Assembly: GCA_963693305.1 (NCBI GenBank) | Contig: OY855915.1 | Span: 1,284,001 to 1,348,000 of the forward strand | Origin: Meandrina meandrites | Lineage: Eukaryota; Cnidaria; Anthozoa; Scleractinia; Meandrinidae | Length of the DNA stretch: 64,000 bases | Direction of reading: 5' to 3' | In this document: positions 9,307-53,700 of the stretch, piece by piece | Numbering within the stretch: position 1 is the first letter of the stretch | How the letters are laid out: each line of letters begins with the position of its first letter | The notes under the pieces: generated by a model | What the model was told of the DNA's origin: nothing | Databases searched by the model: none | The model's input: the letters and a program-made list of their open reading frames with translations, nothing else | Translations under genes and position numbers: made by a program

Positions 9307-9358
9307 ATGGCAGTGAAGTTTGTTTTGGCTCTGTTGCTTTCGCTATTCTTGGTTTCAG
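9307..9358 (+). CDS. Exon 1: initiator and signal peptide
   Basis: Encodes [17 protein letters not shown], a short positively charged start followed by a leucine-rich hydrophobic core, which is a classic secretory signal. It ends in a GTAACA donor at 9359, leaving phase 1. The next codon, completed in exon 2, is Asp, followed by AQRC, so cleavage is expected near this junction. Frames upstream are open but have no in-frame ATG after 9184. Confidence 0.8.
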
Positions 9359-19500: not shown

Positions 19501-22500
19501 CACTGATAGACGATTAAATGGTATCTTTTTAACTCCTGTGAGAAAATTGATGTAAACACTTAGGTTCTTAAACAAAGACTACCGAAATAAACCTTCGAAA
19601 TCTCGCTTCACCTAGCTTTTCTTCTTTGTGGCACGCTCTCTATGACATATTCAATGTATAATTTTCTTTAGGTTATGTTCCTGTTGGATGTTACAAGGAT
19701 ACGTTAAATCGTTCAATGCAAATAATAGAAGGAACCGATTTTATCTTGGATGGATCGTACTCTTCTCGATCGGTCCCCATTGCAAAGTGCGCCGTGGCTG
19801 CAATGAGAGCGGGCTACAGTATTTTTGCAGTTCAGGACGGAGGCCAGTGTGCAGCTAGTGCTACAGCGCTACAGACTTTCGACAAGTATGGAAAATCTAC
19901 TGCGTGTAAGGCTGATGGTGAAGGTGGACCATCGGCTAATCAGGTCTATTTGATCAAAGGTGAGACTAAAATTAACAAATTTCATCAATCGCTTTCATTG
20001 ACGAGAGGCAACCTGTAACCAACATTCATAGCTTTTCTTTCTTAAAATTCATGTTTTTTGTTTGTGTTTTGTTGAGCTTAAATAGTATCCCATTGATTCA
20101 CGTCATCTTCACATTGTCTTCAAACCTACACTCTTTTGTCTAATTCATTATTGCCCTTCAAAAGTTACTTTTTCTGGCTTTTACGACTATTTTGCAGAAT
20201 GCAGAATATGAGTTAAGTGAGCGAGCGAATTCACTCGCTCGGTCGATCCTTCGGTTGCTCCTTCCCTTTTTGGGTCGTAGACATTTGTTTGTAATTCCAC
20301 TGACCAATACAAAATTTAAATTGGCGATGAAATTTTAAAAATGTCTACAAATATGAAACGTAGTAAAGCAAGGAGTGATGAGATAATTACAGTTATGTCC
20401 AGAGCATGTGGTGTGAGCATTTTCTTATCTGAATTGAAACTAGAAACTAGAAAGAATTAGAAACTTGAAAGCATTTGTTCTCCTTGTTACGAAATGAACG
20501 CGGGCTCCTGGCAAGCATGGGTTTTAATAACATGATGCATGCAATGCATGAATATTGAGCAAAATAATAAATTATTATAAATGGGAAGCACTTATTAGCT
20601 TCTTGGGGGAAAAAAGAAAGAAAAAACACAACGGAGTGAAAAAAGAAAAGAAAAAAAAAAAGATCGTGCGAGTGCCCGCCCGTGTGTTGAACTCTCGCCG
20701 ACCCTGCTTTTCAGTACAGTATACCAGCGCATTGAGCTAACTTAACAGAGAGGTCCGCAAAGCGTATATGCATTATTGCATTGCGGAAGTGAGTGATTTG
20801 AGTGTGATTTTAAGAGGTTTAAAGAAGGGACAGAAGAAAGAAATTTATTTTTGGGACAAAACCAAAATATTTTCATCTTTTCTGCTTATACCGATGCATG
20901 TACTTTATCATGCAAAATAGTGGCAGTCTCAAAGAGTACTTTGATTGATTACGGCGCGTCCTGAAAACATTTCAGTATGTAGAAATGACTTGCAGGAGAA
21001 AAATAACGATATGTTTTAATCCCTACCTTAATTAGTTAATATTTAAATGGTAACTTTTAAATTCGTTTTAGAAAATTGATGTAAACATCTAGGTTCTTAA
21101 ACAAGCACTACCAATATCAACCTTCCAAATCTCGCAGCATCTAGCTTTTCTTATTTGAGGCACGCTATGCAGCATATATTCTATGGAACGCAATATGCTA
21201 TTGCCAAATCTCTAACCATTCTATCCAAAATGAACGTGGAAGGAAAGCAGTTTATTATTTATATTTTCTTTAGATTATGTTTCTGTGGGATGTTACCACG
21301 GCTACAGGTCATATCGTGCAATCCAAATAATAGAAGGACCGGATTGTCGAAACTTGTCGAAATGACTTGGAAGAAAACGAACTTAACGAGATGTTTAATC
21401 CCTACTTTGGTAGACGACTCCTCTACGAAAATTGATGTAAACACTTAGGTTCTTAAAAAAATGTCTACCGATATAAAAATTCAAAATCTTGTTTCACCTA
21501 GCTTTTCTTCTGTGTAGCACGCTCTCTATGATATATTCATTGTAGTGTTTTCTTTAGGTTATGTTCCTGTTGGATGCTACAAGGATATGTTAAAACGTTC
21601 AATCCAAATAATAGAAGGAACCGATTCTATCTTGGATGGATCGTACTCTTCTCGATCGAACCCCATTGCAAAGTGCGCCATGGCTGCAATGACAGCGGGC
21701 TACAGTATGTTCGCACTTCAGAGTGGAGGCCAGTGTGCAGCTAGTGCTACAGCGCCACAGACTTTCAACAAGTATGGAATATCTACTGTTTGTAAGGCTC
21801 ATGGTGAAGGTGGACCACGGTCTAATCAGGTCTATTTGATCAAAGGTGAAACACTAAAATTAATCAATTTCTACAATAGCTTTCTTTGACGACAGAAAAA
21901 CTGTAACGAACATTCATCGCTTTCATTCTCAAAATTCATCTTTTTGATTTGTGTTTTGTCGATGTTATGTCGCTTGACTAGTCTTCCATTGATTTACCTT
22001 GACTGTAAAATTACAACAATTTCTACAATCGCTTGCGTTGACGACAAACAAACTGTATCCGCCATTCATAGCTATTCATTTTGAAAATTCATCATTTTCG
22101 TCATGTTTTGTTGGTGTTATATTGCTTAACCCTATTCAGACCGGGCTTTTTTGGATCTTTTCAGACCGGGGGTGTTGGGCGGATTCCGCCCCCCTTCTTA
22201 ACTTGCAGAATATTTAAGCAATCACAATCTTCCAATATACGTCACGTGGGGTGATGGCGTCACATCACGAGACAATAACATTATGTCAAAACAGCCGCCA
22301 TCTTGGATCCGCTATCTTGAATTTTAAAATTTTTTAGAATGAAATGACTTACAAGAAAAAAACTCAGCGATATGTTTCAATCTCCGCCTAAGGAGACGGT
22401 TAATTGCGAAGTTTTTCTACTCCTTTAATTAAGAAGACTGGCATAAACCTTTCAGTTATTTAACAAATACTACCATAGTAAGCCTCCCAATTCTAGCATC

Positions 22501-25500
22501 AGCTAACTTTTCTATGTTGTTGCACGCTTTCCAGGATGTATTCTCTGGAATGCAATATGCTATTTGCAAAACTGTCCAGTTCTATCAAAAATGAACTTTG
22601 AAGGAAAACAATTTACTATTTATATTTTCTTTAGATTATGTTTCTATGGGATGCTACAAGGATACGTCAAATCGTGCAATCCAAATAATAGAAGGAACCG
22701 ATTCTATCTTGGATGGATCGTACTCTTCTCGATCGGACCCCATTGCAAAGTGCGCCGTCGTTGCAATGAAAGCGGGCTACGGCATGTTTGCAGTTCAGAA
22801 TGGAGGACTGTGTGCAGCCAGTGCTACAGCACTACAGACTTTCGACAAGTATGGAAAATCTACTGCTTGTAAGAATGACGGTGAAGGTGGACCATCGGCT
22901 AATGAGGTCTATTTGATCAAAGGTGAGACTGTAAAATTAATCAATTTCTACAATCGCTTTCATTGACGACACATCATCCGCAACAAACATCTATAGCTTT
23001 TCATCTTTTTTATTTGTGTTTTGTTGTTGTTATGATGCTTGAATAATATCCCATTGATTCACGTCATCTTTCCGTTGTCCTCACTCATATTCTTTTTTGT
23101 CCAATTAAGTATTGTCTTTCAACTGTTCCTTTTTCTGATTTTTGATCATCTCGTCCTTAATAAATTTCGGTATGTTGAAATGAGTTGCAAGAAAAAACTT
23201 AAAGATTAAATGGTAGCTTTTCAACTCCTTAAAAAAATTGATGAAAAACATTTGGTTCTTAAACAAACACTACACTACCAATGCAAAGCTTCCAAATCTC
23301 GCATCACCTAATCTTTCTTTTTTGTTGCACACTCTCCAGGATATATTGTAACCATTCTGTCAAAAAATGAACTTGGAAGAAAAACAGTTTACTATTTATA
23401 TTTTCTTAAGATTATGTTTCTATGGGATGCTACAACGATACGTCAAATCGTGCAATCCAAATAATAGAAGGAACGGATTCTATCTTGGATGGATCGTACT
23501 ATTCTCGAACGGACCCCATTGCAAAGTGCGCCGTGGCTGCAATGAGAGCGGGCTACAGCATGTTTGCAGTTCAAAATGGAGGACAGTGTGCAGCTAGTGT
23601 AACAGCGCCACAGACTTTCGACAAGTATGGAAAATCTACTGCTTGTAAGGCTGATGGTGAAGGTGGACCATCGGCTAATGAGGTCTATTTGACCAAAGGT
23701 GAGACTGTAAAATTTAAACAGTTTGTACATTTCTTTTTCGCTGACGACACACAAACTGTAATTAACATTCATAAAATTCATAATTTTCTGTAAAGCCTTC
23801 TTGTTTAGTATTGCGTGACGCATCCCGTTATCCCCTAGTTCTAATACGGGACTTAAAAAAAGCTCCTCATGCTAGCGAGAACGTTTTCGCAACGTCAGTG
23901 TATTTTCAGTGCGTATTTTGTAGCTTCATTACCTGTTAACCTCGTGGCCATGGGCCAAGCGCGGTTCTTGCTCTGCATGGGATTTATAAACCGCGCGGCC
24001 ATGAGCCGAGCGCGGTTCTTGCTCTGCACGGGATTTATTAGTAGTAGTATTTTTTTGTCGGTGACCAGACCCAAGCCTCCAATCGGCCAAATCGTGATCA
24101 GGAGTTTGAATTACGCAACCTGTGATGTTTATTCGCCAAAAGCTGTTAAAACAGTAATGTACGGAAATATTATGGATATTGCTTACTTTATTGTGTATAA
24201 AATATTTTTTCTTTTGGTCTAATCGAAGCGTTGGATTCAAACGGAATGTTCCATACACTATACAAAGGTATAACGTCAGCCATGGAATGCGCTGATGTTA
24301 CAGCTTTCACTTTTGCTACGTAACAAATAAGATTGTGTTTACTTTGCAATTTTATTTCGCCAGAAGCGATGGTCATTAACCCTATTCAGACCGGGGGGGA
24401 AGTGCCCGCGCTGACTTTGAACGTTTATAACTTTTTCAAGATTCAACCAAATGCTGCCAAACTTTACGAGTTTTTCTAAAATTTATCTGGGAATAAATTG
24501 GTAGGATAGGTTGTTGTGTCTGGAACTTGACGTTACCATGGCAACGTCATTTTGACAGACATGTTTTTCCAAATTTGTAATTTTTGTGTTGCCATTAATA
24601 AAAATTAACTTTAATTCAACTATTTTCACCTCTTTTAGGTTTTTTGCACTGTTTTATATATTTTGAGTATTCTTCAGTAATTTTGGGCGGTTTTCTGATG
24701 TTTTGGAAACATTTTGAAATCCAAGATGGCGGATCCAAGATGGCGGCTGTTTTGACATCATGATGTAATTGTCACGTGATATGACGTCATCACCTCACGT
24801 GACGTATATAAAAAGATAGATTTTTGGACATACTATATATCCTGTAAGTCTTATTGCGATTGCGGTCTGAAAAGATCCAAAAAAAGCCCAGTATGAATAG
24901 GGTTAATTTATTTGCAATTTTGCAAGTATTTCTTTTCGGTTTAGGCAATTTAAGTGAATTCATTTGCTATTTTAATCGAGGCCTGTTCAGAGATTTGAAG
25001 GGAAATTAAAAATTTGCTGAGGTAAACAATTGAGCGTGCCCGTACTTGCAGGGGTTACGTCATTAGTAGTTAAATACACCAAAAAAGATATTACGTCAGC
25101 CATGGAATGCGCTGACGTTGTAGCTTTCACTTTCGCTACGTGTAAAATAATATTGTGCTTACTTTGTATAAGTTTATTTCGCCAGAAGCTACGGTCATTA
25201 ATTTGTTTGCAATTTTTCGAGTATTTCTTGTGAGTTTAGGCAATTGAAGTGATATCATTTTTTTTTTTGCCTGCTTTATCCACGCGAGTTCAGAGATCTG
25301 AAGGAAAGAAATTTTGCCGAGGTAAGCACTTGTAAGGATTACATCATTGGAGGGAAATTACCGCAGTACATCACCGTTCTGAAGATAGTCGTGAACAATG
25401 TAGAGCTTTGGGACCTTGACTCACGCAACCTGTGATGTTTATTCGCCAAAAGCTGTTGAGGCATTAACGTAGGGAAAGAATTAAGGATGTTGTCTTCTTT

Positions 25501-28500
25501 AATATGTATAAAAATTTATTTTTTTCAAAGCGATGGACTGTAAGGGAATTTTAAATACACTAAAAAGAGGTATTACGTCAGCCATGGAATGCACTGATGT
25601 TGCAGGTTTCACTCTCGCTACGTGACAAATAAGATTGGGTTTACTTTGCAAGTTTATATCGGCAGAAGCGACGTTCATTAATTTATTTGCACTTCTGCGA
25701 GTATTTCTTGTTGGTTTAGGCAATTGAAATGGATCCTTTGGCTGTTTCCTCGAAGCGAGTTCAGAGATTTGAAGAAAAATTAAATGTTTGCTAAGGTAAA
25801 CAATTGAGCGTGCCCGAACGTGCAGGGATTACGTCATTAGTAGGGAAAAAAACACTAAGCTAAAGATAGCCTTGGGTAAAGTTAACATCGGATTGTGTGA
25901 CTCGCGTGACTACTTTGCTAGTTCTTTACTCATAGTGCAAACAGATTAAATTTAACCGTGACTTTTGAGAAAGAAAGCTGTTGATTAACAAAAAAAATAT
26001 AAGCGCGGTTTTAACTTGCTGACAACTTCTTGTTTACTCAAGCTTCACCCGAAGCTATTCCCGAGTACGTTCCATTACAGTCTTTGACAGTCCTAGCCGG
26101 ACATTTGGTAAGAATCCTGTAATGCTTCACTTTCACCTTCAAGTTGTAATTCGTCGGTCCCGACATCGTGGTAAACAAATAAACCGGATTAGACTGTTCG
26201 ACGTATGGCTCGTACGATTGTTTTCTCGCGTCCCGTTCCGCATGGAAAGGCGGCCGCTACATTTTCGTTATGTTTTGTTGGTGTTATGTTGCTTAAATAG
26301 TATTCCATTGATAAAAGTCATCGTTTCGTTGTTGTAACCCTTACTCTTTCATATCCAGGTATTGTCTCCCATTTGTTACTTTTTCTGTGTTAGATGATCT
26401 CGTCCTTAATTAATAAATTTTAGTATGTAGAAATGACTTGCAAGAAAACAAACTCAGCGATATGCTTTAATCTTCACCTTGGTAGACGATTTATTGGGAA
26501 AGTTTTTGGAAGATTGACATAAACCTGTTCTTGAACAATACTACCACTGTAAACGTTCGACTCCTAGCATCATCTAACTTTTCTATTTTGTTGCACGCTC
26601 TCAAGGCTATATTTCCTGGAATGCAATATGCCATTGGCAAAACTGTCCAGTTCTATCAAAAATGAACGTGGAGAGAAACAGTTTAGTATTTATATTTTCT
26701 TTAGGTTATATTTCTGTGGGATGCTACAAGGATACGTCGAATAGTACAATCCAAATAATAGAAGGAACCGATTCTATCTTGGATGGATCGTACTCTTCTC
26801 GATCAAACCCCATTGCAAAGTGCGCCGTGGCTGCAATGAGAGCGGGCTTCAGTATGTTTGCAGTTCAGGACGGAGGCCAGTGTGCAGCTAGTGCTACAGC
26901 GCTACAAAGTTTAGACAAGTATGGAATATCTACTGCCTGCAAGGCTGATGGTGAAGGTGGACCATCAGCTAATGAGGTCTATTTGATCAAAGGTTAGACT
27001 ATAAAATTACAACAACTTCTACAATCGCTTTCATTGACAGGAGAAAACCTGTAACCAACATTCATAGCTTTTCTTTCTAAAAATTCAGGTTTATTATTTT
27101 TGTTTTGTTGAGCTTCAATAGCATTCCATTGGCCCACGTCATCTTTACATTGTCTTCAAACCTATTCTCTTTTGTCCAATTCAGCATTGCCTTTCAACAG
27201 TTACATTTTCTGGTTATTACGACTATTTTGCAGAATGCAAAATAGGAGTTAAGTGAGCGAACGAGTTCACTCGCTCGGTCGATCCTTCGGTCGGTCCTTC
27301 CCTCTTTCGGTCCTAAACTGTTGTTTGTAATTCCGCTGACCAATCCACAACTTAACTTGGCGATGAAATTTGTCTACAAAATGTGAAACATAGTGAAGCA
27401 ATGAGTGATGAGATAATTACAGTTATGTCAAGAGCATGTGGTGTGAGCATTTTCGTATTTGAATTGTTTTAAAAAGAAACTAGAAACAGGAGCCATAATG
27501 GGAGGAGACCGTAAGCGCGAGATCTGACCTTGTCCCTATGATATGGGACAAAATTTCTATTTTTACAACAAATCGTGCCATCCCGCGTGGCGTGCGCGTA
27601 CGGCCGCGAGGATTTTCGCAAGGACGTCGCGCGGAGAAATATAAACAAAATGGCGTCCAAAATTACCTCTACAAGTGAAGTAAACACTGGCTTTCTTTCA
27701 TCAGTTTCTATTCCTAATTTACGTCAAGGCCTCCTTGAGCACTTCTTTGAAGGTAGCCATGGAAGTGAGGACGATTCAAGTGATTCGGATGTCTGCAGTA
27801 GTATTTTTCTCCGACAAATGCAGTCGCGAAGACTCGTTAGACATGTCGTACGAGGAATCACCCAGTGGTCAAAACAATTTACGAAACGTTTCACAGCGCA
27901 GCGATATGGGCAACCAAAGAATAAAGAATGTCAGCCAAAAAAGGAGAAACCATATTTTTGCCGAAATACGATTGTATACGCCATTTCAACCTTTCCTTGA
28001 TGTTTTGTTGTAAGTTATATGTGACTTTCATATCATATAAAATTACATATATACTGCATAATGAAAATATTTTCATTGAAGTCACTTATCCGACTAATGC
28101 TGCTTCAAAATATTTCTTTTAGTATCCTGTATTATAATTTTCAGTTCAGCTAAAACGTTGCTGAATAGTATGGAAAGATCGGAAACTCCCAGCAAAAGTT
28201 GTAAACAAATGAAGCAGAAGAAGATTCTTTTTTTTTTGAATTAAAAAAAAATTAAATCTACCAATTTCTTTTTTCGTTTATTTTCAAGTATGAGAAAATA
28301 CAGCATATGTGCAAACGGCTTTATCTGGTTTCGTGTGTCTAGTCTTGATAGAACCCATTCGAATTTGGCTCGCCAAGATAGCTATCTCTCGTCTTTAATT
28401 TTGGAGCGCTTTGAAAACGCTCTTGTTCCAGTAAATTATTAAAACTAGCCGCATTCTCAAGATTATTTAGCACCTGGAAATAAACATGCTACGGATAAAA

Positions 28501-31500
28501 TTGCGGCTGAGCTTTGTATTTATGCATTTTATTTAGCAATGAATATGGCATGTGGCGTGGCATGTTCAATTCCAGGTGCTAAATAATCTTGAGAATGCGG
28601 CAAGTTTGAATAATTTACTGTTACCCGAGGGTTTCCAAATGGAAGACGCGGAGTAGTTATCTCGGCAAGCAAAATTCGACGCGTTTCATCGAGACTGTTT
28701 TCATGAAAGTAGACAAAGCTGTTTGCATATATGCTGTATTTTCTCATACTTAAAAATATAAGAAAAAAAATCGGTAGATTTTCTTTTAATTCGAATTTAC
28801 GCACCGTAAACCTCTTCCTCCTCATTTGTTTACAACTTTTGCTAGGAGTTTCCGATCTTTCCATACTTTAGTTGGCATTAACCTTTCAAATAATCTATGG
28901 GATCTTAGCATTGCTTAAACGTTGTTGTAACAGCTCCAAATTATACACAAACATAATATTTTGAAGAAAAAATCAACAGTCATTCTGTGTAGCAATTTAA
29001 CTACCCAGCCGATTTCGTTGAAACTTGCTCACATTAAAAATTGGATAATTTGAACTTGCTGGCATTGATAAGAAAAAATCTATCGTCGCGTTTGGCAAAT
29101 ATTCGCGTTTTTTTTCATAAATGTTTTTTTTTTAAAAGCGCCAATATCTCGTGATCGTTTGCCTTGTTTGCCCTATAATTTAAAGCTTTATAAAATTTGA
29201 ACATTTGTTGTTTCGATTGCCAAAAATCAGAAAAATCGGATGAGGTTTACATGCCCAAAACTCGATTTAGAAAAGAGCACCTCAGTTCCCCCAAAAATTG
29301 CCGCTAGCTATCTTAACCAAAGTAAAATCCAAATGTAAACGAGTCATCGTGAATTTCATCTTACTGAGAAAACTTCTCTAGATTAGTCTTGATCCAGGAG
29401 ATGAATTTAGCACGTTAAGGAACCTGCACAGCCTACTGTACAAATCGCGTCCGTGCAAAATTTATGGTTGACAGAACGACTGATTTCTTTTTCGTTCTCA
29501 AGTTTTTGCACAGAGTCTTTTGCGGCAGATTGACTCGCGACTCACATGACACTAATCACGCAAATCTAGCAACATCGACCCGAGAACCCACGCAATTCCC
29601 GTGTATCCGCGCGTGTCTACCTGTTCTAAAAATATAAAAAATTGTCTCGTATCATAGGGTGTGTGGATCTCCCGCTTACGGTCTCCTCCCATTATGGCTC
29701 CTGACTAAAAAGCATTTGTTGTCCTTGTTACGAAATGAACGCGGGCCCCTGACAACCATGGGTTTTAATAACATTATGCATGCAATGCATGAATATTGAG
29801 CAAAGTAATATTAAGTTATTATAAATGGGAAGCACTTATTAGCTTCTTGGGGGAAAAAAGAAAGAAAAACACGTCAGAGTGAAAAAAGTAGAGAGAAAAA
29901 AATCGTGCGAGTGCCCGCCCGTGTGTTGAACTCTCGCCCTCCATGCTTTCCAATTCGGTATACCGGCGCATTGAGCTAACTAAACAGACAGGTCCACGAA
30001 GCGTATACAGCTATTTCAATTAACGTTGTCGGATTGAAGCTCAAAGCTTAAAGACAAGACCGAAAGGTAGTATGGGCGAAGAAAGAGTGTTCCACGCGTG
30101 CTGAATACTAATGAGATACAGCGATATAGCAAACGAGACGTTTTTCGTTTCCTTTCTCTTCAGACATGTGTAGAAAAGATCCTTTTTCGCCTCATTTCAT
30201 TTAAAAAGAATAATCCAAACCACATAACGGCGAAAGAAAAGATTCAAGAAAGGTTTCACGGAAAGAAAAACAAATATTCCACGTGCAAAAATACAAACTT
30301 GTAGATTTCCTCAATGATGATATGCAAATTGAAGTAAATACCCATGACACCTTTCGGTCTTGACTCGTAGGTTTGAAGATTTAATCCGACAACGTTAATT
30401 GAAATAGCTGTATGTATCTAGAGCGTTATGTACTATTTTATTGCGGAGTCAGGGCAGTGATTTGACTGTGATTTTAAGAGGTTTAAAGCAAGGACAGAAG
30501 AAAGAAAATTATTTTTGGAACAAAACCAAAATATTTTCATCTTTTCTGCTTATACTGATGCATGTACTTCATCATGCAAACTACTCCTAGCCTCAAAGAG
30601 GCCTTTGATTGATCACGACGGGTCCTGAAAACATTTCAGTATGTAGAAACGACTTGCAGGAAAAAAAAATAAAGATATGTTTTAATCCCTACCTTAGTAA
30701 ATATTTAGATTGTAATTTTTCAATTCGTTTAAGAAAATTGATGTAAACATGTAGGTTCTTAAACAAGCACTACCAATATGAACGTTCCAAATCTCGCAGC
30801 ATAATTTCTTATTTGAAGCACGCACTGTAGGATATATTCTATGGAATGCAATATGCTATTGCCAAATCTCTAACCATTCTATCCAAAATGAAGGTGGAAG
30901 GAAAGCAGTTTACTATTTATATTTTTTTAGATTATGTTTCTGTTGGATGTTACCACGATCCGTCAAATCGTGCAATCCAAATAATAGAAGGAACGGATTC
31001 TATCTTGGATGGATCGTACTTTTCTCGATCGGACCCCATTGCAAAGTGCGCCGTCGTTGCAATGAAAGCGGGCTACGGCATGTTTGCAGTTCAGAATGGA
31101 GGACTGTGTGCAGCTAGTGCAACAGCGCCACAGACTTTCGACAAGTATGGAAAATCTACTGCTTGTAAGGCTGATGGTGAGGGTGGCCCATGGGCTAATC
31201 AGGTCTATTTGATCAAAGGTTAGACTATAAAATTAATCAATTTCTACAATCGCTTTCATTGACGACAGACAAACTGTAACGAACATTCATCGCTTTCATT
31301 CTCAAAATTAATCTTTTTTATTTGTGTTTTGTTGATGTTATGTTGCTTGACAAGTATTCCATTGATTCACCCTCACTGTAAATGTAGCTGGAGTTTACGT
31401 TGAATAGATGAATATATGATACGTTTGGAACGTAAATGATAAAAAATACACTCAATGAAGCTAAACAATAAAAGGATCGTTCGACGAGACTAAAACAACA

Positions 31501-34500
31501 TTTACACAATAGATTGGAACTCTGCGTGAGCTAAATATTCATACAAACATTACAATCTTCAATCGATAGTACTACAGACGAAATTTGTATATCAAAATAA
31601 TAAACGAAGAAAAGGCTAAAACTAAACAAACTGTCAACGTAGAATCATACTTCTTTTCCCCTTTTGTGCAAAAACAGAACCTTTGTCGTTGTGATAGTTT
31701 GGAGGCACACGTTAGACTACGTTACGCAATAAACTTATAGTGAACGCCCCCAAAGCTACTGCGCATGTTCGTTTCCGTCACGCAGCAGATTGATATAACA
31801 AACGTAACAGGGCTCCCCTAAATTTGCAACAATTTTTAAAACGAATCAAAATCTAATCAGTCATTCATTGTTCATTACTTAGTGTCTTTCTTTGCTAGTA
31901 CATAAGCTCAAAGAGCGTTATTGTCTCTTTAACGTTGTGGGCTCCTTGGTCACGCAACAAATTGAAATAATAAACGTAACAGTAAAATTAAAACAATTTC
32001 TAACATCGCTTGCGTTGACGACAAACAAACGGTATCCAACATTCATAGCTTTACATTTTGAAAATTCATCATTTTCGTTACGTTTTGTTGGTGTAATACT
32101 GCTTAAATAGCATTCCAGTTATAAACGCCATATTTTAGTTGTAATAACCCTTACCTTTTCATGTCATGGTATTGTATTTCATCTGTTACTTTTTCTGTGT
32201 TAGATCACCGCGTCCTTAATAAATTTTAGTATGTAGAAATGACTTAGAAGATAAAAACGCAGCGATATGTTTTAATCTCCGCCTTGGTAGACGATAAATT
32301 TCGAAATTTTTCAACTCCTTTTAGACGATTGACATAAACCTTAGTTATTGAACAAATACAACCATAGTAAGCCTCCTAATTCTAGCATCAGCTAACTTTT
32401 CTATTTTGTTGGACGTTTTCCAGGATGTATTCCCTGCAGTGCAATATGCTAGTGGCAAAACTGTCCAGTTCTATCAAAAATGAACGTGGAAGAAAAATCA
32501 ATTTACTATTTATATCTTCTTTAGATTATGTTTCTGTTGGATGCTACAAGGATACGTCAAATACTACAATCCTAATAATAGAAGGAACGGATTCTATCTT
32601 GGATGGATCGTATTCTTCTCGTTCGGACCCCATTGCAAAGTGCGCCCTGGCTGCAATGAGAGCAGGCTTCAGTATGTTTGCAGTTCAGAATGGAGGACAG
32701 TGTGCAGCTAGTGCAACAGCGCCACAGACTTTCGACAAGTATGGGAAATCTACTGCTTGTAAGGCTGATGGTGAAGGTGGACCATCGGCTAATGAGGTCT
32801 ATTTGATCAAAGGTGAGTTTGTAAAATTTGAACACATTTCCTTTTTTTATTGTTGACGAAACACAGACTGTAATTAACATTCATAAGTTTTCATTTTGAA
32901 AATTAATCATTTTCTGTAACGCCCTCTCAGTCGTTTAGTATTGCGTGACGCATCCCGTCATGCCCCTAATACGGGACTTAAGAGTCTCTGACTCAGAAAT
33001 CGGGGCAGAGGTCGGAAGAAGGGGGTCGGCCGATCTCCACCATATTTATGTTGCATACAGGTTTTACCCAACTAGCAGCCATGGCAACATTTTTTTGTTG
33101 ATTGACTTCATTGTTTCGGAGATCAGACCACCCCACTCCCCCTCCAAAAAAAAATTCCCCCAGTGGCGTAACTTTAGGCCAACTTTAGCAGTGTGTATCT
33201 CTGAACTTATTCAAGCAACAGGCTTAATTTTACATCAACATAACACTTATACTTTGGTGGTTTAAATGCATACAAGAACAAACGTTTACTGTACATCGTA
33301 CAAGTTCTGCATGCAATCTTAGAAGGCATACTTCGCGACGTTTTCAAAAGTCGCAAAACTAGGCATTTTAAAATTCCTGTTTCTCGAGGGTCTGGGAAGA
33401 TACAAATATCAAACTAATTGCAAGTTACTCACCGGATAAAGGAGAATGTTTTAATCCAGTTTTAAAATTGGACCAGCGAATATGAATTTTTTAACGGTTT
33501 GAACGACTTTCATTTACCCAAGCAAATCTTGTACAATTACGGCTTCCCTGATGCTGTCGATCGTATTATCCGAATTTCGCCTTGCAAGCGTCCCTGACAG
33601 GTTAGAACAACAACAGCTATGACTTCTTGTCATATTATTTATGATTTCGCTGAAGAACCCCTATATTTTAAAAGAGAGCCAAGTAAATGTATACTTGGCA
33701 TTGCGTGACAGCAGATCAACACGTTTCTTTCAGCGTAGCAATAGAACCAAAGCCAAAGTGTCCACGTAGATGAACAAAATGTTATCTTTTCTCCTTGAAA
33801 ACGTGATCCAAACTCATAAAACGCTTTCAGGTATCCTGTAAGCGAGTTCCAAATGCAGTAGAAAGCAGAGAAAATAATGTTGATCTCCGTGTAATACTGT
33901 CCTTAGTATGTATAATGTAAGGACATTTCCACTGATTTCCGTCACCTTTTGAGGCTTGCTTTTAGTCCGTGTATTCGTCGACCATTTTCTATCCATGGAA
34001 CGAATAATAAGTTGCATAAGAAATGGATGACATTTGCCCAACCGTTGGCACACAACACAAGTCTTGCGAGTGGACTGGGTATCAGAAAGGCAGCGGGTTT
34101 GTCGGAGGTCTCGGAGAGGGAAGGCGTCGCTTGGTGCTGCTGCGACTGCTTGCTGGGCGGAGGGAGGCTTGTTAGGACAAATTCTGATACCAATGACAAT
34201 TTCTAACGTTTTCGAAAATTCGTGTTCTGTTCTTTATCTTTTTTTTTTTTTTTTCACACGTTGCCTTTGATTCGCTTGCCGTGCATCGTAGTCAGATCCC
34301 AGTCCGTTTTATAGTTACGAAGAACCCTAGCAGGAGTTTTGTACTATGTCCCGACTTTACACATTCATCATTTTCGTTATGTTTTGTTGGTGTTACGCTG
34401 CTTAGATAGTATTCTGGTTATAAACGCCATATTTTAGTTGTCATAACCCTTACCTTTTCATGCCCTAGTATTGTATTTCATCTGTTACTTTTTCTGTGTT

Positions 34501-35515
34501 AGATCACCGCGTCCTTAATAAATTTCAGTATGTAGAATTGACTTAGAAGATAAAAACTCACTCAGCGATATGTTTTAATCTCCGCCTTGGTAGACGATAA
34601 ATTGCGTAATTTTCAACTGCTTTAAGAAGATTGGCATAAACCTTTTCTATTTTGTTGGACGCTTCCCAGGATGCATTCTCTGCAATACAATATGCTAGTT
34701 GCAAAACTGTCCAGTTCTATCAAAAATGAACGTGGAAGAAAAAAACAATTTACTATTTATATCTTCTTTAGATTATGTTTCTGTTGGATGCTACAAGGAT
34801 ACGTCAAATACTACATTCCTAATAATAGAAGGAACGGATTCTATCTTGGATGGATCGTATTCTTCTCGTTCGGACCCCATTGCAAAGTACGCCCTGGCTG
34901 CAATGAGAGCAGGCTTCAGTATGTTTGCAGTTCAGGACGGAGGACAGTGTGTAGCTAGTGCTACAGCGCCACAGACTTTCGACAAGTATGGAACAACTAC
35001 TGCTTGTAAGGCTGATGGTGAAGGTGGACCATCGGCTAATGAGGTCTATTTGATCAAAGGTGAGGTTGTAAAATTTGAACAAATTTCCTTTTTTTATTGT
35101 TGACGAAACACAGACTGTAATTAACATTCATAAGTTTTCATTTTGAAAATTCATCATTTTCGGTAACGCCCTCTCAGTCGTTTAGTATTGCGTGACGCAT
35201 CTATCGAACTGCCGAAAATGAAGCTAGAGTTTGGTCGTCGGAGTTTTTCGTTTTTAGCAGCCTCCGTTTCTAACAGTTTACCGTCGGACATGAGAAATCT
35301 GAACTCTAGGCTTCTATTTAAACAAAAAGTTAAAGAACATTTTTATTTGTAATTTTTATTCATAAGCTTTTATATGTTTTTGTCCATTGTAGTTTTAACA
35401 TTTTTAAACTTTTAAACTTTTTGTATTTTTACCTTTTTAAATTTTTAAATCTTACAGGACCCCTAAGATGACAGTACTTTCAAGTACCGATGGGTTAATC
35501 CTGTTAAAATATTCG

Positions 35516-35556
<41 letters not shown>

Positions 35557-35677
35557 ATTTTGTATCTATATATTTTTAACCACGTACACCTAAGATTCAA
35601 TTTTGTATGAAAAGTGCTCAATAAAGTTTTGATTATTATTAAAAAAAAAAAATTATTATTATTATTATTATTATTAC

Positions 35678-35734
<57 letters not shown>

Positions 35735-41700: not shown

Positions 41701-44700
41701 CTTGTTTTTTATTTTCTGCACACGTTGCCTTTGATTCGCTTGCCGTGCATCGTAGTCAGATCCCAGTCCGTTTCATAGTTACGAAGCGAACCCTAGCAAA
41801 AGTTTTGTACGAAGTCTCGACTTTACACATTCATCATTTTCGTTATGATTTGTTGGTGTTATGCTGCTTAAATAGTATTCCGGTTATAAACGCCATATTT
41901 TAGTTGTCATAACCCTTACCTTTTCATGCCATGGTATTGTATTTCATCTGTTACTCTTTCTGTGTTAGATCACCGCGTCTTTAATAAATTTCAGTATGTA
42001 GAATTGACTTAGAAGATAAAAACTCAGCAATATGTTTTAATATCCGCCTTGGTAGACCATAGTAAGCCTCCTAATTCTAGCATCAGCTAACTTTTCTATT
42101 TTGTTGGACGCTTCCCAGGATGCATTCTCTGCAATGCAATATGCTAGTTGCAAAACTGTCCTGTTCTATCAAAAATGAACGTGAAAGAAAAAACAATTTA
42201 CTATTTATATCTTCTTTAGATTATGTTTCTGTTGGATGCTACAAGGATACGTCAAATACTACAATCCTAATAATAGAAGGAACGGATTCTATCTTGGATG
42301 GATCGTATTCTTCTCGTTCGGACCCCATTGAAAAGTGCGCCCTGGCTGCAATGAGAGCAGGCTTCAGTATGTTTGCAGTTCAGAATGGAGGACAGTGTGC
42401 AGCTAGTGCTACAGCGCCACAGACTTTCGACAAGTATGGGAAATCTACTGTTTGTAAGGCTGATGGTGAAGGTGGACCATCGGATAATGAGGTCTATTTG
42501 ATCAAAGGTGAGGTTGTAAAATTTGAACAAATTTCCTTTTTTTTTATTGTTGACGAAACACAAACTGTAATTAAAATTCATAAGTTTTCATTTTGAAAAT
42601 TCATCATTTTCGACAACGCCCTCTCAGTTGTTTAGTATTGCGTGACGCATCCCGTCATGCCCCTAATACGGGACTTACGAGTCTCTGACTTAGAAACCGG
42701 GCAGGTGTCGGAAGAAGGGGATCGGCCGATCTCAACCATATTTATGTTGGATACAGTTGTTACCCAACTAGTAACCATGGCAACATTTTTTTGTTGATCG
42801 TCTTCATTGTTTCGGAGATCAGAGCACCCCCCCCCCCCCTCCAGAAAAAAAAAAAATTGCCCCAACTTTAGCAGTGCGTATCTCTAAACTTATTCAAACA
42901 ACAACATTACATGTGTACCATAACACTTCTCCTATGGTAGTTTAAATGCATACAAGAACAAATGTTTACTGTACATCATTCAAGTTCCACATGCAATCGA
43001 CGTTTTCAAAAGTCGCAAAACTAGGCATTTTAAAATTCCTGTTTCTCGAGGGTCCGGGAAGATACAAATATCAAACTCATTGCAATCTACTCACCGGATA
43101 TAGGAGAATGTTTTACATGTAAGCCAGTTTTATAATTGGACCAGCGAATATGAATTTTTTTAACGGTTCACTGTTTTACCACTTCGACGACTTTCATTTA
43201 CCCAAGTATAGGAGAATGTTTTAATCCAGTTTTAAAATTGGACCAGCGAATATGAATTTTTTAACGGTTTGAACGACTTTCATTTACCCAAGCTAATTTT
43301 GTACAATTACGGCTTCCCTGCTGCTGTCGAGTGTATTATCCGAATTTCGCCTTGCAAGCGTCCCTGACAGGTAAGAACAACCAACAGCTATGACTTCTTG
43401 TCATATTATATATGATTTCGCTGAAGAACCCATTTATTATAAACGAGAGCCAAGTAAATGTATACTCGGCATTGCGTGACAGCAGCTCCACATGTTTCTT
43501 TCAGCGTGGCCATAGAACCAAAGCCAAAGCGTCCACGTAAATTTTGTTCAAAATCGCATCTTTTTCTCAGCAATTAGAAAGGAACACTAAAACAAAAAAA
43601 AACAATCAGATTTCAAAGCTTGTTTAAAGTAATTAACCAATCAAATTGCAGGGGAAAGCAGTGCGATTTATTCCCGAATTATATCCTTTCTTTGGTCAAA
43701 ATCGCATCGTTTTTAGATACCGGGTCCCTAAAATATTGGTACTGACTAAAATCCTGTATTTTGGCAATTAAGTTGTGCATTTCAAAATGCATGTAATTTA
43801 GTGGAACATTATTATAGGAAATTAACGCTTCATGAAATTAAGGCGAAAAAAAAAACAAAAACTCGCGCAAAAATGGTAGTGGATATTATTTCAAGAGTAC
43901 TAAGCATCCACTGCCGCGCGCCGAATTATAATTTGAAGTTAAAAAATTAGTATATGAACACCCAAACAGTCCCCTGGCAACCTGGGGTGCTCTTGCGTGG
44001 GGGTCAACTGTCTGTTGGTGTTTCAAAAATAATTTTCTTTCTTCTATCCCTTTCTTAAACCTCTTAAAATTTCACTCAATCCGAGGATTTCTGGATATAT
44101 TTTAGCTCGTTGTTCCTTACATCTTTGATTTATTGAAAAGCTCGTTCTAACACTAGCGTTTATTTCCTATAATAAGTTAATTGAACTTGGTGTCGTGCGC
44201 TGTGCACTCGTTCGATTTTGAGATCACGAGTATAATTTCAGACCAAATGGCACTCCACTTAGTTCAGATACCATTATGAATAAACGTTGGTTTTTGAAAC
44301 GGCTAATATGAAACGCGCACTCGTCTGCGGACTACGGACTGGGTATAAAACATGAACTGTGGTATAAAACGTGGACTATGGACTTCGGATCGGACAATGT
44401 ATCTGACTATGTATGTAATACGGTCTGGGGTATAAAATACGGATATGGTATAAAAATGCGTTCTAACTGTGAATAAACGCGAACTGAGTATAAAACGATA
44501 ATCGAGGCTGTTAAGTTAACTCGGCAATGTAAGCTTTGTCTTTCAGTCAAAATAGCTGAAAGTTTCTTCCCAAGGGTGAGGAACCGGAAAATTGATTTTT
44601 TTATTCTTCGCTTCAAATTTCCATTTCTGAACTGAATATTTCAATGCTGCTCTGGGTAAGTCTAGGATTCCCTGAGCCCCTTCACGCCGCTTTATCAAGT

Positions 44701-47700: not shown

Positions 47701-50700
47701 CATAAAAAAAGGTCGTGGAACAACTACAATATCTAGTAAAGAATCTGGAAAGTGCATATCAAGAAGCACGCAAAATCCTTAAGGAACGTTATGATAACCC
47801 TGCCATAATCAGAAACAACTTGGCTAAGGTCGGACCAAGCGATGCAACTGGTCTGGAAGAATTCAGTGGTTTCTTGCAACAAGTGAAAGTCGCAAGTAAG
47901 CATAGCGAAAGTCTCAAAGTTCTCAGGTACGTACCCTTCACAAATTCAAGTCTTAGTTTAAAAGCTACCTGGATGGTTTAAATCAAAATGGTCAGATAAA
48001 GTGTTAAAGCTTTAGAGAAAAAAGGGAAAAGATTCTTTCCCTTCCTTTGAAGAGTTCGCCGAAGAAATACGCTACCATGCGAAAGGACAAACATCCCTCA
48101 AATTCTGCAAAGTCCAGGAACATCTGGCTCCACAACCCCGGATCGAGGTAAGCCTGCAGGTCGCCAATTTCGTTGAACACGACATTCAAATATTGCATCG
48201 ACAGTTGCATCACCTTCAGGCAACGACAGTGAGCTAAAACTTGTTGACAAAGAATCAGAAGTGGTAGCAATCCAAGCTCAGCAACCAACCCTGAAAACCA
48301 CTCCACCAAGTAACATACCAACCACTCAGCAACCAAGCCTCGCCACTCCACCTGACTCTGGTACATGCTGCTTCTACCAGAAGATGAAATCCCATGCAAT
48401 GAATGACGGTGAGCAGTTCCAAAGGCTTAGCTATGAAGAACGTAAAGACTTCCTGATAAAGAACAGGATCTGTTGTAAGTATGTGAGCTCTAACAAACAT
48501 GACTCTAAAGACTGCAACAGAGACAAGCTACAGTACAAGATCTGCCAACAGAAACACGCCACTGTACTTCATGATCCGACCAGACATGAAAAGAAAGACA
48601 TTAGCAGAGCTACAACTGCCTGTTGTCAAGTTTGTGATCAAACCCAGCCAGCACGCTCTTGTGCACGAATAGTCCTTCTTGAAGTCTTCCACCAAGACAA
48701 TCCCTCAGTGAAGGCACCCACCTATGCAGTATTGGACGACCAGTCGACGGATGTTTTCGTTACAGATTCCCATCTCGAACAGCTAAGAGTAATTGGCCAA
48801 GAAGTAAACATTGAAATAAACAGGATTACAGGAGTAAACAGTGTCCGCACCCAGAAAGTCAATGGATTACACATCCAAGACGTTGACTATCTACGCAAGT
48901 CTATTAAGGTTCCATTTGCATACAATTCCAGCCAGTCGAGAAGACATTGCAGCACCAGAAATAGCCAGGTCTTGGAAGCATTTAGAAGAAGTGGCTCATC
49001 GCATACGTCATCATCCTGATACAGAGACTGGATTATTAAATGGCCGTAACATTCCATCTGCTTTCCAGCCATTGAGTATCATCTGTGGCGGAGAAGATGA
49101 GCCTTGGGCTGAAAAATATAAGTTCGGTTGGACAATCATCGGTCCTGTGTGTCTACACAAGAGAGAAGACAGTAATGCGATTAACTGTGCGGCGGTTAAT
49201 CGCATTACGATACAGCGAGAAATCCCTCAAAACTACTTCAATGTGCCAACAAACAGCAGTTCCAAAAAAGATTCCGTGATGTCGTTTGCCACAAGGCACT
49301 ACATTAAAGCTGTTACCTCACCCCAGTAAGTCAGAGAAAAGATGCAATTGGACTACATGCAGTGAACTTCACCAAACCCGAAATATCCCCGGCACCGAAA
49401 AAAGTGAGACCGTGGAGGACAAACGTTTCTGCCACATTCTCACTACCAACATCAACAAAAATGAAACGGGGAATTGGGAAATGCCTTAACCATTCAAAAC
49501 AGATGATGTGACTTTACCAAACTATCGCGAACAATGTCTGAAAAGGCTACTTGGCATCAAGAGAAAACTCCTTAAAAATGGCAAGACACTAAAACATTAC
49601 ACTGAGCTCGTCAGAGGGACTTTGATAACAACCATGCTAGTCTCGTTCCACCAAAGGAACTGCTGACCAGCGCTAGGAAAGTCTGGTACCTCCCACATTT
49701 TAACATCTACCACCCCAAGAAACCGGATCAAATTCAAATAGTCCTCGATTGCAGTGCTGTCTTCCAAGATAGACATGATGAATGGTCTCGTTGGTGTACT
49801 CTCGATTTTTCGAAAAGAAGAAACAGCAGTAAAAACCATTACCATGGCAACGTCATTTTGACAGACATGTTTTTCCAAATTTGTAATTTTTGTGTTACCA
49901 TTAATGAAAATTAATTTAAATTCAACTATTTTCACCTCTTTTAGGCTTTTTTTTTTTTTGCACTGCTTTACAGATTTTGAGTATTTTTCAGTAATTTTGG
50001 ACGGCTTTCCGACGTTTTGGAAAAATTTTGAAATCCAAGATGGCGGATCCAAGATGGCGGATCCAAGATGGCGGCTGTTTTGACATCATGATGTAATTGA
50101 CTCGTGATGTGACGTCATCATCCCACGTGATGTATATCAAAAGATAGATTACTTGTGAATATCGGGTAAATGCCCATCTCTTCGGAGCCCATCTCTTCGC
50201 CAGGCGTTGCCAATTTTGGTCTAAGAGCCACAGCAGAAATCGGTCGAGAGCAATTTTTCCAGGCAGCTGCAGACTTTCTTCAACAAGACTTCTACGTCGA
50301 TGATGGATTAAAGTCTTTTATTACACCTGAAAATGCCAGCGATGTCATCAGAAAGAGTGAGACATCTTGGATACCCCTACTTATTCACTGTTATAAATCC
50401 ATTAGTTTTCAGTTCATTATTTTACTGTTCATCGGTTTGGTCTGGTACTTGTAAAGGAAATATTGCTAAACTCCAACTGGTACAGAACTTTGCTGCCCAC
50501 TTGCTGTCAGGGAAAAGAAAGTTTCACCACATCACGTCAACACTTAAGCAATTAAAGCTTCTTCCTGTTTCTGATCTCCTTTATATCAGAGACGCTGTGC
50601 AGATGTACAAATGTATGAATAATTTGGCCCCTCCCTACCTAAGTCAGTTATTTACTAAGAGGTCACAGACTCACAGATTTCTTACCAGGAATAGAGACAG

Positions 50701-53700
50701 CCTTCAACTGCCTAAATGCAGAACTGCTCTGGCGCAACAATCGTTTGTGTTCCGCGGAGTTACTATCTCGAATTCTCTTCCAGAAGAGTTAAGAAACTGT
50801 AGTTCTATAGTTTCCTTCAAAAATCAGCGAAATCCGCGCTCTTGAGCAAGTGGCTAAACGACTAGTTTAAACTCCTTGGAAACGTTTAATGGTACTTTAT
50901 ATTGAATTGTTGTTATAGTAAGGTTTTATTGTATTTTTTTTATTTTAATTTTTTACCATGTAAATTATTAAGATTTTTCTATTTTAAAATTTTGTAAATT
51001 GAGTATGAAGATCGCTTTGGGGAACTCAATAAACTTTATTCTATTCTGAAGGCATGTCTGCAGCCGCTAACTTACGCTTACACAAATTTGCTAGTAACAG
51101 CAAGACCGTACTGGAGGAGCCATGCCTGCTGAAGATCGCTCAAAAAACCTGAAGGATCTTGATCTTCGTCGGGATGTCTTATCTGTCCAGCGTTCACCAG
51201 GCACCTATTGGTGCATAGAATCTGACACCATCGGATTCCGCATAGACCTTAAAGATAAACCTCTCACCCGCAAGGGAATCCTTTCAACCTGTCAACTCAG
51301 TTTTGGCGCTGCTGGCGACGAAAATACTGCTTGCTACAACAGAAACGCCAGAAATGGAATGATGTCAGTCCTAACAGCCAAGTTGGTGATGTTGTCCTTA
51401 TTCGCGATGATCTCTGCAAACCAGTGGTCACTTGCCAGAGTGACGGAAGTCTATCCCAGTGAAGATGGGTTTGTACGCAAGGTCCCCCTCCTCGTCAACA
51501 AGTCTGGAACGAAAGAAGTTCTTTAAAAGACTTATCAACAAGTTGATCCTGATTTATCGTCCAAATGAAGATGAAAGTAGCGACTGATTCAGTGTGCTGA
51601 TAAAGGAACCTGGACTGTCCTTTCATATAAGAATGATTGACATTGTTACTTCACACAGTGTGTATTTTCTAGCTTCGTTACCCGCTGCATTTTCGTTATG
51701 TTTTGTTGGTGTTATGTTGCATAAATAGTATTCCATTGAAAAAAGTCATATTTCCGTTGTTGTAACCCTTACTCTTTCATATCCAGGTATTTTCTCTCAT
51801 CTGTTACTTTTTGTATGTTAGATCATCGCTTCCTTAATAAATTTCAGTAAGTTGAAATGACTTGCAAGAAGACAAATTCAGCGATATGTTTTAATCTTCA
51901 CCTTGGTAGACGATTGATTGGGAGATTTTTAAACTCCTTTTGGAAGACGGACATAAACCTTTTGGTTCTTGAACAATACTACCATTGTAAATGTTGCACC
52001 TCTAGCATCAGCTAACTTTTCTATTTTGTTGCAAGCTCTCACGGCTATATTTCCTGGAATGCAATATGCCATTGGCAAAACTGTCCAAATCTATCGAAAA
52101 TGAAAGTGGAAAGAAACAGTTTAATATCTATATTTTCTTTAGGTTATATTTCTGTGGGATGCTACAAGGATACGTCGAATAGTGCAATCCAAATAACAGA
52201 AGGAACCGATTCTATCTTGGATGGATGGTATTCTTCTCGATCGGACCCCATTACAAAGTGCGCCGTGGCTGCAATGAGAGCGGGCTATATTTTGTTTGCA
52301 GTTCAGGACGGAGGCCAGTGTGCAGCTAGTGCTACAGCGCTACAAAGTTTAGACAAGTATGGAATATCTTCTGCTTGTAAGGGTGATGGTGAAGGTGGAT
52401 CATCGGCTAATCAGGTCTATTTGATCAAAGGTGAGACTATAAAACTAATCAATTTAATTATTCGCCTTCATTGACGAGAGACAACTTGTAACCAACATTC
52501 ATAGCTTTTTTTATCTTTCTCATTTGTGTTTTGTTAGTGTTATGAGCTTGAATAGTATTCCACTGATCTACGTCATCTTTACATTGTCTTCATAGCCATG
52601 CCAATTCAGTATTGCCTTTCAACAGCTATCTTTTCTGGTTTTTGATCACGGCGCGTCCTGAAAAAATTTCAGTATGTAGACATGACTTGCAGGAAAACAA
52701 AATTAACGATATGTTTTAGTCCCTACCTTGGTTAATAATTAAATAGTAACTTTTCAACTCCTCTAAGAAAATTGATGTAAACATTTATGGTTTTAAAAAA
52801 GCACTACTGATGTAAACCTTCCAAATCTCGTATTACCTAGCTTTTCTTATTTGAGGCACGCTCTCAAGGATATATTCTATCGAATGCAATATGCTATTGC
52901 CAAACCTCTAACCATTCTATCCGAAATGAACGTGAAAGGACAACAGTTTACTTTTTATATTTTCTTTAGATTATGTTTCTGTGGGATGCTACAAGGATAC
53001 ATCAAATCATGCAATCCAAATAATAGAAGGTACGGATTATATCTTGGATGGATCGTACTCTTCTCGAACGGAACCCGTTGCAAAGTGCGCCGTGGCTGCA
53101 ATGAGAGCAGGCTACAGAATGTTTGCAGTTCAGGACGGAGGTCAGTGTGCAGCTAGTGCAACAGCGCCACAGACTTTTGACAAGTATGGAAAATCTACTG
53201 CTTGTAAGGCTGATGGTGAAGGTGGACCATCGGCTAATCAGGTCTATTTGATCAAAGGTGAGACTATAAAATTACCACAACTTCTACAATCGCTTTCATT
53301 GACGACACTCAACCTGTAACCAGCATACATAGCTTTTCATTTTGAAAATTCATCATTTCCGTTGTCTTTCGTTGGTTTTGTGTAGTATTCCATTGCTGCT
53401 CGTCATCTTTTAGTTCTCTGTCTAAGGCGCACTCTTTTACGGCCAATAGTAATTTGGAGATATTTCAAGCATTCCAATCAGGTGTGGAAGTGGTCGGTTG
53501 AGAGTAGCATCCTAGGGGCTCTCTCGCTTGTTTTTGTAATGTTCTGTTCGCACCGATTTTCCTGCTCGTTTTACTTCGGTCTACTTTGTGCCGTCCTGAC
53601 TAACAGCCTTTGGGTCTCCTCGATCGGATGAATTCTCACCAGCAGGCTTCAACAATCATTATCTGATATGCTACGTCATCGTTATCACTTCAATTTGAAT

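What the first reader, a model, noticed from the sequence alone, without database searches (positions are those of the whole stretch)
19672..53257. Eleven near-identical 288-nt frame-neutral exons in one receptor kinase
Seen: eleven full copies, each exactly 288 nt, phase 1-1, with intact acceptor and donor, no stops, and strongly similar 96-residue products, spread over 33.6 kb. Known: symmetric exons can be added, skipped or shuffled without frame loss. Inference: the ectodomain of this kinase could vary in length and composition by splicing (a Dscam-like situation) and between individuals by copy number, which would suit a recognition or allorecognition receptor.
Basis: partly seen in the sequence, partly recalled or inferred. 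Interest (0 to 1): 0.93.

Follow-up and report, generated by a model that had tools for sequence, protein, structure and literature searches.

The report
Coral receptor kinase with WSC-exon array
A coral-type cell-surface receptor kinase carries eleven interchangeable copies of one domain where its closest relative found has a different stalk; the copies look coding and real, but whether they are mixed by splicing or vary between individuals is not known.

Summary
Eleven 288-nt exons lie at the stated coordinates, all phase 1-1, open, AG/GT bounded, plus one truncated relic. They sit in frame between the F5/8C and transmembrane exons of an open 2,064-aa receptor kinase model: signal, CUB, CUB, F5/8C, W x11, TM, kinase. 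W is WSC-like by fold. The closest kinase found, Oculina LOC144630040 (P0133), has an FN3 stalk and no W; the window keeps a broken FN3 relic before its TM exon. So a W array seems to have replaced an FN3 stalk. In 55 copy pairs the exons show no indel in 15,840 aligned sites and about half the divergence of their flanks: they are kept as coding exons. Arrays of 5-22 W occur in 23 of 129 long homologues; with a kinase motif I found at most two W, in capped lists. Most likely all copies are spliced in, giving a multivalent ectodomain, and copy number changes by unequal recombination, as in human DMBT1. Dscam-like choice is possible but unsupported; a docking scan found nothing beyond controls. 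No cDNA or population data were available.

The parts
9307..9358 (+). signal-peptide exon (start ATG), ends phase 1
   Evidence: hydrophobic start and GT donor; no homologue seen covers it
10824..10978 (+). CUB1 exon a
   Evidence: 75.9% to P0133 over 29 aa
12994..13198 (+). CUB1 exon b
   Evidence: 79.7% to P0133
15376..15720 (+). CUB2 exon, phase 1-1
   Evidence: Pfam CUB 73.2 bits
17519..17805 (+). F5/8C exon a; its 5' end is uncertain (17519, 17522 and 17531 keep frame; the acceptor implied by P0133 is not present)
   Evidence: 73% to P0133
18274..18415 (+). F5/8C exon b, ends phase 1
   Evidence: 75.5% to P0133
19672..19959 (+). W1 WSC-like exon, phase 1-1
21274..21345 (+). truncated 5' relic of a twelfth W exon, acceptor kept, runs into a stop
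21558..21845 (+). W2 exon
22635..22922 (+). W3 exon
23411..23698 (+). W4 exon
26705..26992 (+). W5 exon (donor gttaga)
30931..31218 (+). W6 exon (donor gttaga)
32525..32812 (+). W7 exon
   Evidence: its domain was folded
34772..35059 (+). W8 exon; lacks the family-invariant Cys40 (Tyr) and Ser76 (Thr)
42220..42507 (+). W9 exon
52143..52430 (+). W10 exon
52970..53257 (+). W11 exon, ends phase 1
53824..53889 (+). relic of an FN3 exon with an in-frame stop
   Evidence: 77% over 22 aa to P0140, 73% to P0133
54965..55106 (+). transmembrane exon, starts phase 1; the coding match to P0133 begins at the same residue
55755..55960 (+). kinase exon 1 (glycine loop, motif name recalled)
   Evidence: 84% to P0133
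58537..58721 (+). kinase exon 2
   Evidence: Pfam PK_Tyr_Ser-Thr 50.7 bits
59525..60307 (+). kinase exon 3 with long Glu-rich insert
   Evidence: (28% over the insert)
60691..60902 (+). kinase exon 4 ([11 protein letters not shown]; motif names recalled)
   Evidence: 93% to P0140
61606..61646 (+). kinase exon 5
62002..62098 (+). kinase exon 6
   Evidence: 97% to P0133
63372..63546 (+). kinase exon 7 with stop codon

Best explanation
This is a receptor tyrosine kinase gene of a coral-type cnidarian in which an array of WSC-like domain exons (one domain per exon, phase 1-1) took the place of a fibronectin-III stalk. Shown: the exons, phases, open gene model, WSC-type fold, the FN3 relic, a relative with FN3s and no W, and exon-specific conservation. 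Inferred: the direction of the swap; growth of the array by duplication of exon plus flanking intron through unequal recombination; constitutive inclusion of all or nearly all copies; a long, multivalent W stalk that binds a repetitive ligand (glycan or partner protein) and clusters the kinase. Copy number would then be encoded in the genome and could differ between haplotypes.
Against: No transcript of this gene; the joining of W exons to the kinase rests on phase and anatomy. Over all columns N:S (69:31) does not differ from neutral (omega about 0.83, p 0.43), and private changes are uneven between exons (permutation p 0.01; W2 10N:1S, W10 8N:1S, W8 5N:0S, W5 0N:4S), which could mean that some exons are little used or diversify. 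Gene conversion could explain part of the exon similarity. W8 has lost an invariant cysteine. The 5' end of F5/8C exon a is unsure. The FN3-to-W direction rests on one relic and one relative.
Confidence: 0.62

Rival explanations
1. Combinatorial or mutually exclusive splicing (Dscam-like): each transcript carries a chosen subset of W exons, so cells or colonies display different ectodomains, used for recognition.
For: Equal length, phase and homology are the published features of mutually exclusive exons, rare among other Drosophila X exons (0.56%; PMC3228551 section 13); a cited model has tandem exon duplication lead to exclusive splicing (PMC9013439 passages); any subset keeps frame; columns free to vary show omega about 1.34, not significant (p 0.39); constraint is uneven among exons.
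Against: Two copies together do not break the frame (288 = 3 x 96), so nothing forces exclusivity; no docking signal beyond controls in the two outer introns; many annotated homologues hold W in tandem; three Montipora isoform models share the same five W.
Confidence: 0.17
2. Copy-number-polymorphic array (DMBT1 or LPA type; LPA recalled): splicing is constitutive, but haplotypes differ in W number by unequal crossing-over, so ectodomain length is an allelic trait. Compatible with the best explanation; here as the claim that the polymorphism exists and matters.
For: Mosaic flank homology among units, e.g. W4-W11 align over 1,047 nt upstream, W3-W10 over 832 nt downstream, W1-W5 over 487 nt downstream; young W7/W8/W9 copies (dS 0.015-0.046); a truncated relic; among the listed proteins of the 2,614,759-base contig the nearest W7-type copy is 91% alike while W1, W4 and W5 counterparts are 95-99%.
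Against: Species and haplotype of the other contigs are unknown, and the protein list is clustered at 90% and cut at 120 of 412, so copies per haplotype cannot be counted.
Confidence: 0.4
3. The W exons belong to another, nested transcript in an intron of a receptor whose own mRNA joins F5/8C straight to TM.
For: The closest relative found has no W; no cDNA links W to this kinase.
Against: All eleven lie on the gene's strand with phases that fit both neighbours; the FN3 exon left in this place is broken; W with a kinase exists in three Oculina models of two genes. A separate start or terminal exon for such a transcript was not looked for.
Confidence: 0.1
4. The array is non-functional or an assembly artefact (mis-joined or decaying copies).
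For: Repetitive locus with a reverse-transcriptase ORF in an intron (RVT_1 at 46038-46502); one relic copy; W8 lost a core Cys.
Against: Eleven full copies open with intact sites and no indels while flanks accumulate them; single exons recur with their own intron-derived flanks on other contigs.
Confidence: 0.06

Closest known systems
Oculina patagonica LOC144630040 (P0133), uncharacterized receptor kinase
   Same: CUB, CUB, F5/8C, TM and tyrosine kinase with matching sequence, and the same residue at the start of the TM exon
   Different: an FN3 stalk (Pfam: two fn3 stretches and one FN3_DSCAM match; three domains by my reading of the sequence) and no W; the window has eleven W and one broken FN3 relic
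Oculina patagonica LOC144662599 (P0148, P0152) and LOC144662575 (P0151)
   Same: receptor kinase models that contain W domains joined back to back
   Different: only two W, near the N-terminus; P0148 has TSP1 before them and laminin-G and fn3 domains after
Tandem W-domain proteins of Montipora, Oculina, Hydra, Styela, Saccoglossus, Mnemiopsis, Porites and others (23 proteins)
   Same: 5-22 W domains; in four Montipora proteins 95.5-97.3% alike on average
   Different: none has the HRDL..RN kinase motif or a kinase label in the listings
Human DMBT1/SALSA (SRCR array)
   Same: tandem array of like scavenger domains; alleles with 7-21 SRCR domains, number alters bacterial binding (PMC9038570 passages; PMC4851238 abstract); it also has CUB domains (recalled)
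   Different: secreted (PMC4851238 abstract), SRCR not WSC-like, no kinase; polymorphism measured there, not here
Arthropod Dscam1 exon clusters (general knowledge and listing)
   Same: arrays of homologous exons in a surface receptor
   Different: one exon chosen per cluster; here frame-neutral exons and no docking signal found
WSC domain proteins: yeast Wsc1, Kremen
   Same: fold
   Different: Wsc1 has eight cysteines in four disulfides (PMC9024836 passages); W has four cysteines

Membership tests
WSC domain (PF01822) | sequence score above Pfam gathering cut-off | tested here: not met
   typed W7 (first residue Gly, one Gly added) 25.6 bits against 27.8; the homologous array protein P0122 scores 213.7 and P0121 32.1
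WSC domain (PF01822) | WSC/PAN fold | tested here: met
WSC domain (PF01822) | eight cysteines forming four disulfides (PMC9024836 passages) | tested here: not met
   W keeps four (7, 40, 60, 79); hence filed as WSC-like
receptor tyrosine kinase | signal peptide, ectodomain, one TM, tyrosine kinase domain in one frame | tested here: met
   signal peptide and TM judged by eye and by the match to P0133
Dscam-like mutually exclusive exon cluster | neighbouring exons of like length, phase and sequence | tested here: met
Dscam-like mutually exclusive exon cluster | only one exon of the cluster in each mRNA | not testable with these tools
   no cDNA of this gene
Dscam-like mutually exclusive exon cluster | docking/selector RNA pairing | tested here: inconclusive
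   ungapped 18-nt scan of the two outer introns, less 420 nt beside the array; best hit reached by 1 of 60 shuffles and exceeded by 1 of 20 control blocks; inner introns and other geometries untested
DMBT1-like copy-number-variable domain array | like one-domain modules in tandem | tested here: met
DMBT1-like copy-number-variable domain array | copy number differs between individuals | not testable with these tools
   other contigs seen only as clustered proteins

The most novel reading that the evidence does not exclude
A recognition receptor kinase whose ectodomain is diversified at two levels, allelic number and make-up of W exons and frame-neutral inclusion of subsets by splicing, with the W surface under diversifying selection and several such arrays on one chromosomal stretch.
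Probability: 0.18. Interest if true: 0.88.

Novelty: new variant of a known kind. Interest (0 to 1): 0.52.

Why it matters
It shows a receptor kinase stalk changing type, by loss of FN3 and growth of an eleven-copy WSC-like array, and gives a clean locus (frame-neutral exons, copies of different age, a relative without the array) to test whether a cnidarian receptor is diversified by copy number, by splicing, or not at all. If number or choice varies between colonies it would be a candidate for self/non-self or microbe recognition in corals.

Tried and rejected
Search of the window's own genome (genome search own) did not complete in five tries, so the rest of the assembly was not seen. Sequence search of solved structures found no relative of W, by single sequence or profile (three chance-level hits). 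The gttaga donors of W5 and W6 were considered as a sign of skipping and dropped, because the CUB2 exon of the same gene has gttaga too. Positive selection on W: omega about 1.34 on 44 free columns, p 0.39, not claimed; the split into core and free columns comes from the family alignment itself, which holds close relatives. tRNA scan empty. Pfam scan of intron ORFs found RVT_1 in one ORF and nothing firm in nine further ORFs of the window.

Literature: nine searches were answered. Seven were meant to find this or a like cnidarian array or receptor. One search held no paper. In the rows shown by the other six (15 of 150, 15 of 64, 12 of 159, 15 of 37, 7 of 7, 10 of 32) no title or start of abstract reports a WSC-array receptor kinase; the rows not shown were not seen. 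Two were for WSC structure and DMBT1. In PMC8662651 and PMC8260672 the word WSC does not occur in the main text held. PMC6627431 (passages) lists WSC proteins among sea anemone venom components, function unknown; not followed.

Rows left out: alignment A1 holds 76 of the 120 listed short proteins plus W7; those left out by hand were mostly from contigs 54437, 224878, 251566 and 2614759, with a few others. Only 120 of 412 hits were visible. The two long-protein searches scored only the 7,994 and 7,985 candidates that share most words. The tree used 40 proteins of those four contigs, W1-W11 and two outgroups, without P0003, P0017 and P0042, which the window itself encodes. In one search the motif rows with 0 W come from a script fault; only rows with W are used.
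Full report
Observation. Eleven exons of exactly 288 nt lie between 19672 and 53257 on the plus strand. Each has AG before and GT after and no stop; pairwise identity is 86.5-98.6% in DNA and 70.8-96.9% in protein. In the joined model all start and end in phase 1. A sensitive search adds one 5'-truncated relic at 21274-21345, homologous to the W11 upstream intron and exon start and ended by a stop. The finding is confirmed.

The gene. I joined exons by hand with GT-AG sites and phases. The result is an open 2,064-aa model of 25 exons: signal peptide (9307), two CUB, F5/8C, W1-W11, transmembrane (54965-55106) and a tyrosine kinase in seven exons that ends at 63546. Pfam gives CUB 73.2 bits and tyrosine kinase 50.7 bits on the window's own stretches. 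The array joins F5/8C exon b (ends phase 1) and the TM exon (starts phase 1), so any number of W keeps frame. One weak point: the acceptor of F5/8C exon a implied by the Oculina relative is missing; 17519 is my choice among three in-frame sites.

Relatives. The W domain is common: 412 clustered proteins, 120 listed. A search with the ectodomain gave 105 proteins and one with the full model 48, 129 distinct; both scored only the roughly 8,000 candidates that share most words. The closest kinase is P0133, Oculina patagonica LOC144630040, with CUB, CUB, F5/8C, FN3-type domains, TM and kinase, and no W. tblastn pieces match the window at 52-97%, the Glu-rich insert exon at 28%, and the TM exon starts at the same residue. 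The FN3 trace found in the window is 53824-53889, 77% alike over 22 residues to P0140 and 73% to P0133, with an in-frame stop. So the FN3 stalk seems to have decayed in this lineage and the W array stands in its place; the direction is inferred from one relic and one relative. Other receptor models with a like kinase carry other ectodomains: F5/8C-FN3 (P0140), CUB-EGF (P0149), TSP1-W-W-LamG-FN3 (P0148), a kinase family that swaps modules. Among the 129 long proteins those with both W and an HRDL..RN kinase motif are P0148, P0152 (isoforms of one gene) and P0151, with two W each; 23 of 129 have five W or more, none with that motif. P0236 and P0238, with a Pkinase label, have one W each.

Selection. 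In all 55 pairs the exon aligned without a gap (0 events in 15,840 sites, divergence 0.094) while the homologous flanks, as far as blastn extends, differ by 0.172 and 0.181 with 2.25 and 1.92 gap events per 100 nt. Pairs share ancestry, so these are not independent counts. About 100 changes are inferred; 4.4 stops would be expected without constraint and none is seen, P 0.012. Pooled pN/pS over pairs is 0.60. Against a picture of strong protein constraint: counted once per variant, N:S is 69:31, not different from neutral (p 0.43). Split by columns, 52 columns conserved in the family have omega about 0.46 (p 0.02) and 44 free ones about 1.34 (p 0.39); the two classes differ (Fisher p 0.016). 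Private changes are uneven between exons (p 0.01). Of 21 invariant family columns only W8 breaks any (C40Y, S76T). Frame and core are guarded; the rest varies freely or diversifies. Conversion between exons could also lower exon divergence.

History. Flank homology is mosaic: W4 and W11 align over 1,047 nt upstream, W3 and W10 over 832 nt downstream, W1 and W5 over 487 nt downstream, and W7-W8-W9 are young. Counterparts of single exons occur on other contigs: W1, W4 and W5 on one of 2,614,759 bases, W6 and W10 on one of 54,437 bases, each pair starred on the tree; W7-W9 group with P0002 at 92/96, not starred. Several share intron-derived flanks. W copies of the large contig also pair with copies of a 251,566-base contig (four pairs, two of them starred: P0084-P0097 and P0064-P0050), so more than the window's array seems to lie on that stretch. 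Species and haplotype of these contigs are not given; likeness to Oculina suggests a stony coral (inference).

How it works. I think all copies are normally spliced in. Reasons: one domain per exon in phase 1-1 is the usual build of shuffled extracellular modules (general knowledge); tandem W is frequent in annotated homologues; three Montipora isoform models share five identical W; W-W joins of the same form occur in P0001 and P0005. In DMBT1, passages of PMC9038570 report 7-21 SRCR domains by allele, protein size following copy number, and a minor part for splicing in the cell line tested. The Dscam-like reading stays open: frame-neutral exons permit it, PMC3228551 finds these features rare among other exons, and PMC9013439 cites a model in which tandem duplication leads to exclusive splicing. 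My scan for docking pairing (two outer introns by two flanks) found one site, at 54417, reached by 1 of 60 shuffles, but 1 of 20 control blocks scored higher; the other three scans were at chance.

Verdict. A real, intact, eleven-copy WSC-like exon array in a receptor kinase, a new variant of a known kind. Recognition by splicing or by individual variation is a good hypothesis without direct evidence so far.

Noticed in passing
window 59786-60112: A run of about 54 GAA/GAG-type hexamers (87% matches) is read as a long Glu-rich stretch inside the kinase insert exon; the Oculina relative has a different insert. Possibly a length-variable coding microsatellite.
   Followed up: partly
window 17488-17535 and 18274-18415: The F5/8C domain seems to have lost both cysteines of its relative (CPN... 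at the start...INC... near the end), together with the acceptor that would include the first.
   Followed up: partly
window 46038-46502: Reverse-transcriptase ORF (RVT_1, 60.1 bits) in the 9.6-kb W9-W10 intron; other ORFs tried at 47-51 kb had no firm Pfam match.
   Followed up: partly
contigs 251566 and 2614759 (proteins P0050, P0064, P0084, P0097 and others): A further set of W proteins, distinct from the window's, pairs between these contigs (four pairs, two starred).
   Followed up: partly
contig 224878 (proteins P0015, P0019, P0020, P0022, P0027, P0048): Six more W proteins on the contig that also holds window-encoded P0003 and P0042, but not found in the window itself; probably a neighbouring array (inference).
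   Followed up: partly
window 50033-50074: Three exact copies of a 14-bp unit ATCCAAGATGGCGG in the W9-W10 intron.
   Followed up: no
window 23938-24038: Two 51-bp tandem copies (90% matches) in the W4-W5 intron.
   Followed up: no
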